From Virgibacillus sp. NKC19-16 (GTDB lineage: Bacteria; Bacillota; Bacilli; Bacillales; Amphibacillaceae): a stretch of DNA of 64,000 bases. Location: contig NZ_CP074373.1 of the NCBI RefSeq assembly GCF_021560035.1, positions 2,972,001-3,036,000 on the forward strand, in the 5' to 3' direction. This document shows positions 31,301-33,224 of the stretch, piece after piece. Numbering within the stretch: the stretch's first letter is position 1; every line of letters begins with the position of its first letter. Made by a program: the position numbers and the translations under genes. The notes under the pieces are model-generated. The model worked only from the letters and a program-made list of their open reading frames with translations, did not search any database and had not been told where the DNA came from.

Positions 31301-31565
31301 ATGGCGGAGACTGACCCAATAGCGCATGTTTTCATGCCATAAATTGGTAATCCATACGTTTACCCTACACAAATAAAAATGATAAAATTACATGCATGAA
31401 GAAGCTTGGGTCGAGTAATTTATGGTTATACTGGAATTAAAAAATCATGGAAATAGGAGCAGATGAGTAATGGAAAAGAACAAATTAAAAGCGCAAATGA
31501 TCGAAACGGTGGAGAACCAAATTGAAATGAATGATCCTAAGTCTACAAAAGACACATTCAACAGG

Positions 31566-31700
31566 GTGAACTACCCACCACTTATTTGGCCTTACGCTCA
31601 ACTTGAAGTGGGGGCTTCTCGACTTATCGTTACTTTTACTAGCTAACGAAAACAGACCGAGCTAACCCTCTTGTTCCAAGAGTTTTTACTTTTTATGTCA
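31566..31700 (-). ncRNA. Putative omega (right-end) guide RNA of the TnpB element
   Basis: In related elements the RNA covers the 3' end of tnpB and the right-end hairpins, with the guide read from flanking DNA just beyond the element. Here the 3' region has strong hairpins (31574-31614) and the guide would start with CCTGTTGAATG (complement of 31565 downwards). Inferred by analogy; no direct signal beyond the folds. Confidence 0.35.
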
Positions 31701-32808
31701 AGGCTAATAAGCGCAATCCTTCGTTCTTAATATTGATGGCTGCATTAAGATCGCGGTCTCCCACATAACCACAACCGCATTGATAGATACGTTCAGACAA
31801 TGGCATTGGCTTTTCTGCACCACAGCAAGAGCATTTTTTGGTGGAGGGAAACCATTTATCGACTTTTTTGAGTTGCTTTCCCTGTTCTTTTAGTTTATAG
31901 CTCAAAAAAGCAGTGAACATACCCCAGCCATTATCATGTACACTTTTTCCAAAATGAAGCGATTTGGACATGCTTCTCATATCCAAATCTTCCATGATAA
32001 CCGCATCATAATTCGATGATAATGCCTTTGAGTGATGATGAAGAAAATTTTTACGCTGATTGGCCGTTTTCTCTTGGAGTTTGGCTACTTTCAAACGTTG
32101 CTTTTCATAGCGTGCTGAACCTTTCTTTCTATGGGATAAAATACGCTGTTCTTTTGCCAATTTGACCAATGACTGCCGATAGAATTTTGGGTAATTGGCT
32201 TTCTCACCCAGTTCGCTTTCGACATATAGACCATCCATGGCAAAATCTAAACCAACAACACGTTCTATTGTTTTGGGTTTTATTTCTTTTTCGTATTCTG
32301 TTAGGACTGACACATCGTACTTTCCTGTTTTTGTTTTGGTAATCGTGCAAGATTTTATTTTATGATCAGCAGGAATTTCTCGATGCTGCTTGATTTTCAC
32401 GAATTTCAGTTTGGGTAATTTGATGTAACCTTCTGCGATTTTAATGTTACCGTTCACAAAATTTGTTGTGTAGCTTTGTTTGTGTCTTTTGCTTTTGAAT
32501 TTGGGAAACTTGGCGTTGCCCTTGAAAAAGGCTTTATATGCCTTATCTAAATTCAACTGTGCATTTGCCAAAGCTAAAGCGTCTACATCATTCAACCATG
32601 TATATTCCTTTTTATATTTTGCAGGAGTTGGATTTTTGACTTGTTTTAGTAATTCCTTGTCGGCTTTGAGAGATTCATAATTGTCCTTTCGCTCAGCCAA
32701 CATTTTATTATAAACAAAACGCACGCAGCCGAATGTCTTCTGCATGAATAAAGCCTGTTCATCTGTTGGGTAGACTCGAAACTTGTATGCCTTATGTTGT
32801 TTAGCCAT
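31693..32808 (-). CDS. tnpB: TnpB RNA-guided nuclease
   Basis: 371-residue TnpB of normal length with no internal breaks. The RuvC-like residues are present: Asp in VVGLDFAMDGLYV, Glu in AVIMEDLDMRSMS and Asp in GDRDLNAAINI. The zinc-finger cysteines are in KKCSCCGAEKP and YQCGCGYVGDRD. The N-terminus AYKFRVYPTDEQ is typical. It appears intact and possibly active, and sits alone in its element. These proteins cut DNA carrying the element's target motif, directed by the right-end RNA, which favours element retention. Confidence 0.92.
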   Translation of the reverse strand: MAKQHKAYKFRVYPTDEQALFMQKTFGCVRFVYNKMLAERKDNYESLKADKELLKQVKNPTPAKYKKEYTWLNDVDALALANAQLNLDKAYKAFFKGNAKFPKFKSKRHKQSYTTNFVNGNIKIAEGYIKLPKLKFVKIKQHREIPADHKIKSCTITKTKTGKYDVSVLTEYEKEIKPKTIERVVGLDFAMDGLYVESELGEKANYPKFYRQSLVKLAKEQRILSHRKKGSARYEKQRLKVAKLQEKTANQRKNFLHHHSKALSSNYDAVIMEDLDMRSMSKSLHFGKSVHDNGWGMFTAFLSYKLKEQGKQLKKVDKWFPSTKKCSCCGAEKPMPLSERIYQCGCGYVGDRDLNAAINIKNEGLRLLALT

Positions 32809-33224
32809 GTCAAATCACTTCTTTCAAGATGGGAATGTATGTTTCATTATAACACCAAGAAACAGGTTTGGCTATCACCAACCGAAATTCATCTCCCCCT
32901 TACCGCTGGGCTTCTCCCTTCACGCGCTTGAAGAGGGAGACTTCTTTCGGAGTGCTGTTAAAGAAAGCAGGTTATGCAGAAACCACAGCCAAAGAAATGA
33001 TTGCGTCAGTATTGCTTGAAGAGATGGCTTACATTGCGAAAAATAAGGTTCCCTTTGATGAAAAAAGGTATGCGGAGAAGTTGAATGATTTGAATTAGTA
33101 AACAAAACAGCCTGAAGTATACAAGTTATTATCAGCTTGCGTGCAGTGATTATCTTTTCGGTATGGAGCCAGAAGAAACCATACCATTTCAGATGAATTT
33201 TAGGAAGCATAGGGACGGTTATTT

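What the first reader, a model, noticed from the sequence alone, without database searches (positions are those of the whole stretch)
31470..33098. TnpB-only element with exactly reconstructable empty site
Removing 31566-32957 restores a 78-codon gene, so the ends are known nearly to the base. This gives the likely TAM (TTTAA on the minus strand next to the left end) and the guide (starting CCTGTTGAATG). TnpB has all catalytic and zinc residues and may be active, although no tnpA is present.
Basis: partly seen in the sequence, partly recalled or inferred. Interest (0 to 1): 0.6.

Follow-up and report, generated by a model that had tools for sequence, protein, structure and literature searches.

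The report
TnpB-only IS605-type insertion, TTTAA-targeted
A small, well-known kind of jumping gene that carries an RNA-guided DNA cutter (TnpB) has inserted into a small bacterial gene of unknown function; the uninterrupted gene in a sister species and dozens of relatives confirm its ends and target motif, so it is a clean but ordinary example.

Summary
Observation confirmed; interpretation largely right. Window 31566-32957 (1392 bp) is a tnpB-only IS200/IS605-type element inserted in a 78-codon gene. A same-genus genome carries that gene uninterrupted; the joined flanks align with no gap at the junction. TnpB is intact with RuvC and zinc residues conserved. TTTAA abuts the left end in 57 of 57 elements located at up to 4 mismatches (window plus 56 of 79 loci) and in six other own-genome copies. 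A looser search adds seven distant copies from one genome with TTTAT. The right end is a structured RNA ending TTCAC, so the guide starts CCTGTTGAATG. TAM plus guide start occurs once in the sister genome, at the empty site, and not in the host. No IS200/IS605 TnpA was found in the host. Relatives include tnpA+tnpB and, repeatedly, tnpB-only elements. By TAM and size the published ISAam1 TnpB is the closest match; identity to it was not computed. New member of a known kind.

The parts
31566..32957 (-). whole tnpB-only IS200/IS605-type element (1392 bp), no target duplication
   Evidence: empty site in G002 without a gap at the junction; ends match family left and right ends
31693..32808 (-). 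tnpB, 371 aa, intact RNA-guided endonuclease TnpB
   Evidence: Pfam HTH_OrfB_IS605, OrfB_IS605, Cas12f1-like_TNB; NF040570 321.5 bits, cut-off 100; phmmer matches to solved TnpB structures over residues 4-366; catalytic and zinc residues conserved
32867..32957 (-). left end (LE), about 91 bp, shared with IscB elements of the same genome
31566..31691 (-). right end (RE) and predicted scaffold of the omega/reRNA, non-coding, ends GTAGTTCAC
   Evidence: 49-sequence alignment; 11 of 30 predicted pairs with at least one sequence changed on both sides and still paired; window fold z -3.38
32958..32962 (-). TAM and insertion target TTTAA (minus strand)
   Evidence: 57 of 57 elements with an LE found at up to 4 mismatches; six other own-genome LE copies
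31546..31565 (-). predicted guide, CCTGTTGAATGTGTCTTTTG (length of 20 assumed)
   Evidence: sequence directly 3' of TTCAC; TTTAA plus first 11 nt found once in G002 at the empty site, 0 in G000 and G001, exact matches only
31470..31565 (+). 5' part (32 codons) of the interrupted 78-codon gene
32958..33098 (+). 3' part (46 codons and stop) of the interrupted gene
   Evidence: DUF1841 match only below cut-off, 18.6 against 24 bits

Best explanation
This is a non-autonomous, tnpB-only element of an IS200/IS605 group found mostly in Bacillales that inserts 3' of TTTAA. A TnpA Y1 transposase supplied in trans, by a tnpA+ relative no longer in the genome or never resident, inserted it as single-stranded DNA next to TTTAA without a target duplication (inferred from the ends, the empty site and the tnpA+ relatives). 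The transcript across the right end is processed to a reRNA whose scaffold is the RE hairpins and whose guide is the neighbouring host sequence (inferred). TnpB with this RNA would cut TTTAA + CCTGTTGAATG..., which is the empty allele, so that homologous repair copies the element back or into an incoming empty allele (inferred from ISDra2). Today the element probably cannot move by itself in this genome but could still home if TnpB is expressed.
For: Empty site. TTTAA in 57 of 57 left ends located at up to 4 mismatches. Conserved structured RE. Intact nuclease. Relatives with the same LE: tnpA full in 34, partial in 5, none in 18 (window included) of 57; 5 of 5 such ORFs tested are IS200/IS605 transposases above cut-off. 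Same-genus genome G001 has an intact TnpA between the same LE and a related tnpB. No IS200/IS605 TnpA match in G000. TAM+guide start found only at the G002 empty site among the three genomes of the genus held. For ISDra2 the TAM equals the TnpA target and homing is proposed (PMC8612924, passages); TnpB's guide RNA comes from the right end (PMC9956272, passages). In plasmid competition the advantage of an IS+ plasmid needed the TnpB RuvC site, and TnpA was not responsible (PMC11870625, preprint, passages).
Against: No expression or cleavage data. The window copy is alone in its genome at this identity (next TnpB 38%), so recent activity there is not shown. 23 of 79 named-genome loci had no left end at up to 4 mismatches; with 5 mismatches ten more match, of which one has TTTAA, seven (one genome) TTTAT and two, 1.75 kb away and probably chance, neither. 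The RE set was chosen by its terminal motif, so its end is partly conserved by construction, and no shuffle control was run on the RE covariation.
Confidence: 0.93

Rival explanations
1. Immobile relic: the element was inserted some time ago, TnpA is gone and TnpB is merely not yet decayed, with no current homing.
For: No IS200/IS605 TnpA match in the genome; single copy at this identity.
Against: TnpB open over 371 aa with catalytic residues present; RE structure intact; the same-genus genome G002 lacks the insertion.
Confidence: 0.35
2. Exapted TnpB: the nuclease now serves the host (regulator or defence) rather than the element.
For: It sits in a genome without a detected cognate TnpA.
Against: RuvC residues present, unlike the nuclease-dead TnpB-derived regulators (recalled); both ends and the TAM intact; insertion absent in the sister genome.
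Confidence: 0.03
3. The element lacks tnpA because tnpA was deleted from this very copy after insertion, rather than the element arriving as tnpB-only.
For: The 34 relatives with full tnpA have 524-625 bp between LE and tnpB against 149 here; partial tnpA remnants exist in 5 relatives.
Against: No tnpA trace in the window copy by tblastn with two TnpA queries; 17 of 56 named-genome loci likewise have none, with 118-328 bp, and they are scattered on the TnpB tree.
Confidence: 0.25

Closest known systems
ISAam1 TnpB (IS200/IS605)
   Same: TAM TTTAA and compact TnpB (369 aa) according to PMC12433972 (passages); TTTAA and 371 aa here
   Different: Sequence identity to ISAam1 not computed because its sequence was not at hand; here the element has no tnpA; activity of this copy untested
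ISDra2 (tnpA+tnpB IS200/IS605); solved TnpB chains 8bf8 and 8h1j (that these are ISDra2 is recalled)
   Same: TnpB matched over residues 4-366; TAM equals insertion target (PMC8612924); reRNA predicted from the right end
   Different: TAM TTTAA instead of TTGAT; no tnpA. The top solved match is an AI-designed nuclease, 9yyg
IS1341-type tnpB-only elements (name recalled)
   Same: LE-tnpB-RE without tnpA
   Different: Here the relatives include tnpA+ forms with the same left end, so it looks like a tnpB-only derivative of an IS605-like group
IscB/HEARO (ISC) elements of the same genome (L017, L018, L019, L020, L021)
   Same: Same left end (65-79 identical positions over spans of 78-97 bp) and TTTAA
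   Different: IscB runs opposite to the TnpB orientation relative to the left end; HEARO RNA in four of five; right end GTTGAC rather than GTTCAC in the two IscB copies looked at, L019 and L020, and in the gene-less L022

Membership tests
IS200/IS605 superfamily (tnpB-carrying) | TnpB with RuvC triad and zinc finger | tested here: met
IS200/IS605 superfamily (tnpB-carrying) | insertion 3' of a short fixed motif, no target duplication | tested here: met
   empty site; TTTAA in 57 of 57 left ends located at up to 4 mismatches
IS200/IS605 superfamily (tnpB-carrying) | subterminal palindromic ends | tested here: inconclusive
   RE hairpins supported; the LE was not folded
IS200/IS605 superfamily (tnpB-carrying) | Y1 TnpA in the element (not required of every member) | tested here: not met
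   no tnpA in the element, no IS200/IS605 TnpA match in the genome; elements with an isolated tnpB are listed in ISfinder (PMC8612924, passages), so it is filed as tnpB-only
IS605-like group with TTTAA target | same LE and TTTAA as tnpA+tnpB members | tested here: met
IS605-like group with TTTAA target | TnpB cleavage at TTTAA targets | not testable with these tools
   needs a cleavage or depletion assay
ISAam1 | high sequence identity of TnpB and ends to ISAam1 | not tested
   the ISAam1 sequence was not at hand; only TAM and length compared
TnpB-derived nuclease-dead regulators (recalled) | lost RuvC catalytic residues | tested here: not met
   D188, E273, D353 present

The most novel reading that the evidence does not exclude
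In this genome one transposon chassis (one left end, one target TTTAA) carries two unrelated RNA-guided nucleases in opposite orientations, TnpB in one copy and IscB in five, and no IS200/IS605 transposase was found. The nucleases may be all that keeps these stranded elements in place (homing-only maintenance), and the two nuclease types may compete for the same kind of target site.
Probability: 0.15. Interest if true: 0.5.

Novelty: new member of a known kind. Interest (0 to 1): 0.22.

Why it matters
It is a clean natural example: ends known to within a base, an empty allele in a sister species, a predicted guide and a TAM backed by dozens of insertions. It therefore makes a ready test case for whether tnpB-only elements without a resident TnpA persist by RNA-guided homing. 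The shared left end of TnpB and IscB elements in one genome is a compact setting to test trans-mobilisation by a single TnpA.

Tried and rejected
TnpA supplied by the two Y1 proteins of the host: rejected as the cognate IS605 TnpA. They match the REP-associated transposase model just over its cut-off (81.2 and 83.3 bits, cut-off 80) and score 19.5 and 20.1 bits on the IS200/IS605 TnpA model (cut-off 55).

An Rfam family for the right end: the only match in window 31400-33100 was sR5 at 17.2 bits against a gathering score of 40 (E 0.41), inside tnpB on the other strand.

Clean empty sites for the own-genome IscB copy L021 and the gene-less L022 in G001/G002: for L021 both flanks matched but stopped 17-160 bp short of the element; for L022 one flank stops at the element's right end in G002 and the other did not match. 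Neither was used.

Solo right end L016 as an independent insertion: it abuts another repeat, and the flanks in G001/G002 are not a clean empty site. Left as noticed only.

Exaptation of TnpB: disfavoured because the RuvC residues are present.

Literature: the Nature 2023 TnpB/IscB paper that I recall (G. stearothermophilus) is not held. The kinship of ISC and IS605 ends and their trans-mobilisation are recalled from Kapitonov et al. 2016; [quoted passage not shown] I make no claim that anything is absent from print.

Full report
What is there. On the minus strand, window 31566-32957 holds, in order, a left end (LE, 32957 down to about 32867), tnpB (32808-31693, 371 aa) and a non-coding right end (RE, 31691-31566) that ends GTAGTTCAC. 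The flanks join to a 78-codon gene. In the same-genus genome G002 the gene is uninterrupted (L137:1623-1859), and the joined window flanks align to it at 326/359 with no gap at the junction. In the search of 61 genomes 29 had some match; G002 is the only one listed that matches both flanks, and G037 matches 46 bp of the gene's 3' part. That search scored only five first-look candidates per genome (e.g. 5 of 40 in G001), so it does not show that other genomes lack the gene. The gene product has no family above cut-off; DUF1841 is at 18.6 bits against a cut-off of 24.

Borders. Only one base is ambiguous (G31565/G32957). Right ends were sought in the window and 79 named-genome loci with the motif GTAGTTCAC/GTATGTCAC at up to one mismatch: 72 of 80 were found, 68 of them distinct. 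I aligned 49 (window plus 48) and left out 19 from more distant relatives. All 48 end TTCAC, which is partly by construction; the next base, which is not, varies (T20, A17, G8, C3). The base after TTTAA is C in 56 of 57 left ends. Together these favour 31566-32957 and a guide beginning CCTGTTGAATG.

TAM. A scan of public bacterial and archaeal genomes with the TnpB found 122 relatives; the best 80 were kept, as 79 loci of 50-77% identity, mostly Bacillales. A left-end core (CTCCGAAAGAAGTCTCCC, at most 4 mismatches, within 1 kb of tnpB) was found in 56 of 79; 23 had none. In all 57 (with the window) TTTAA lies in the 12 nt before the core, with 5 nt between in 51, 6 in 5 and 4 in 1; in these loci TTTAA occurs in 0.87% of 8-nt stretches. 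Several loci share a genome (four with an LE from Heyndrickxia coagulans, six from Fervidibacillus halotolerans), but their flanks differ by eye. Against this: a looser search (up to 5 mismatches, 1.8 kb) adds ten loci, of which L112 has TTTAA, seven from one Erysipelotrichaceae genome have TTTAT, and L115 and L124 have neither (matches 1.75 kb away, probably chance). So TTTAA is the motif of the closer group, and distant kin differ. Six other left-end copies in the host genome (L017-L022) lie next to TTTAA; L020 lacks three bases at the junction. ISAam1 TnpB has a TTTAA TAM and 369 aa (PMC12433972, passages).

Nuclease and RNA. TnpB matches HTH_OrfB_IS605, OrfB_IS605 and Cas12f1-like_TNB, NF040570 at 321.5 bits (cut-off 100), and NF038281 at 371.3 bits, below that exception model's cut-off of 425. 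By phmmer its best solved match is an AI-designed nuclease (9yyg), then TnpB chains 8h1j and 8bf8 over residues 4-366. In a 10-sequence alignment D188, E273, D353, C326, C329 and C344 are invariant and C346 nearly so; that these are the triad and zinc ligands is partly recalled. The 126-nt right end folds better than all 200 shuffles (z -3.38). Across 49 sequences the consensus has three hairpin regions, and 11 of 30 pairs have at least one sequence with both sides changed and the pair kept; I ran no shuffle control on that covariation. The stretch lies wholly outside tnpB, so coding constraint does not explain it. No Rfam family reached its gathering score.

Transposase. Of the 57 elements, 34 have a full tnpA between LE and tnpB, 5 a partial one, and 18 (the window and 17 others) none by tblastn with two TnpA queries. 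Five of five tnpA ORFs tested are IS200/IS605 transposases at 134-146 bits, cut-off 55. On a quick TnpB tree of 55 rows (two rows under 250 aa, L121 and L122, dropped) the no-tnpA label needs 11 changes, at least 4 by starred branches; it is still more clustered than chance (shuffled mean 15.3, 5 of 500 as low). So tnpB-only forms arise repeatedly. The window copy falls in a set of 20 rows (14 full, 3 partial, 3 none; SH-aLRT 95). The host genome has no match to the IS200/IS605 TnpA model; its two Y1_Tnp hits are REP-associated transposases, just over that model's cut-off. G001 has an intact TnpA between the same LE and a related tnpB. G002 has three open TnpAs, none within 8 kb of the LE matches listed for it.

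The left end (spans of 78-97 bp, 65-79 identical positions) is shared by five IscB elements of the same genome. In these, IscB runs opposite to the TnpB orientation; L017 and L021 are open over 424 aa, while L018, L019 and L020 are disrupted. HEARO RNA was found in four (L018-L021); in L017 the stretch held begins just upstream of IscB, so HEARO could not be judged. L022 is a 226-bp copy with both ends and no gene. Kinship of ISC and IS605 ends is known (recalled: Kapitonov et al. 2016), so this is a neat local instance rather than a discovery.

Mechanism. Shown: borders, target motif, intact nuclease frame, structured right end, tnpA+ relatives, no detected resident TnpA, and the predicted target (TTTAA+11 nt, exact) only at the G002 empty site among the three genomes of the genus held. 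Inferred: mobilisation in trans, RNA processing, cleavage of the empty allele and homing. The models are ISDra2, where TAM equals the TnpA target and homing is proposed (PMC8612924, passages), guide RNA from the right end (PMC9956272, passages), and a plasmid assay in which the IS advantage needed TnpB's RuvC site and TnpA was not responsible (PMC11870625, preprint, passages).

Verdict. Interest 0.22.

Noticed in passing
L016:1728-1809 (G000:C1:1525227-1525308): 82-bp solo copy of the window element's right end (95% identical) directly after TTTTTAA and next to a different MITE-like repeat whose pieces have more than 50 matches in G002.
   Followed up: partly
L017, L018, L019, L020, L021: Five IscB elements (two with open 424-aa IscB; HEARO RNA in four) with the same left end and TTTAA as the TnpB element.
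   Followed up: partly
L022:1574-1799: 226-bp MITE-like copy with this left end and an IscB-type right end, no gene.
   Followed up: partly
L125, L127, L129, L130, L132, L133, L134: Distant TnpB copies (about 50-52% identical, one Erysipelotrichaceae genome) whose left ends lie next to TTTAT instead of TTTAA, a natural pair of TAM variants.
   Followed up: no
G000:C1:1408864-1410001: Another TnpB-like gene split over three matches (29-47% identical by piece) in two open stretches, probably decayed.
   Followed up: no
G001:C1:3615087-3615431, 1400243-1400587, 3739876-3740096: Decayed tnpA fragments beside the same left end in a sister genome.
   Followed up: no
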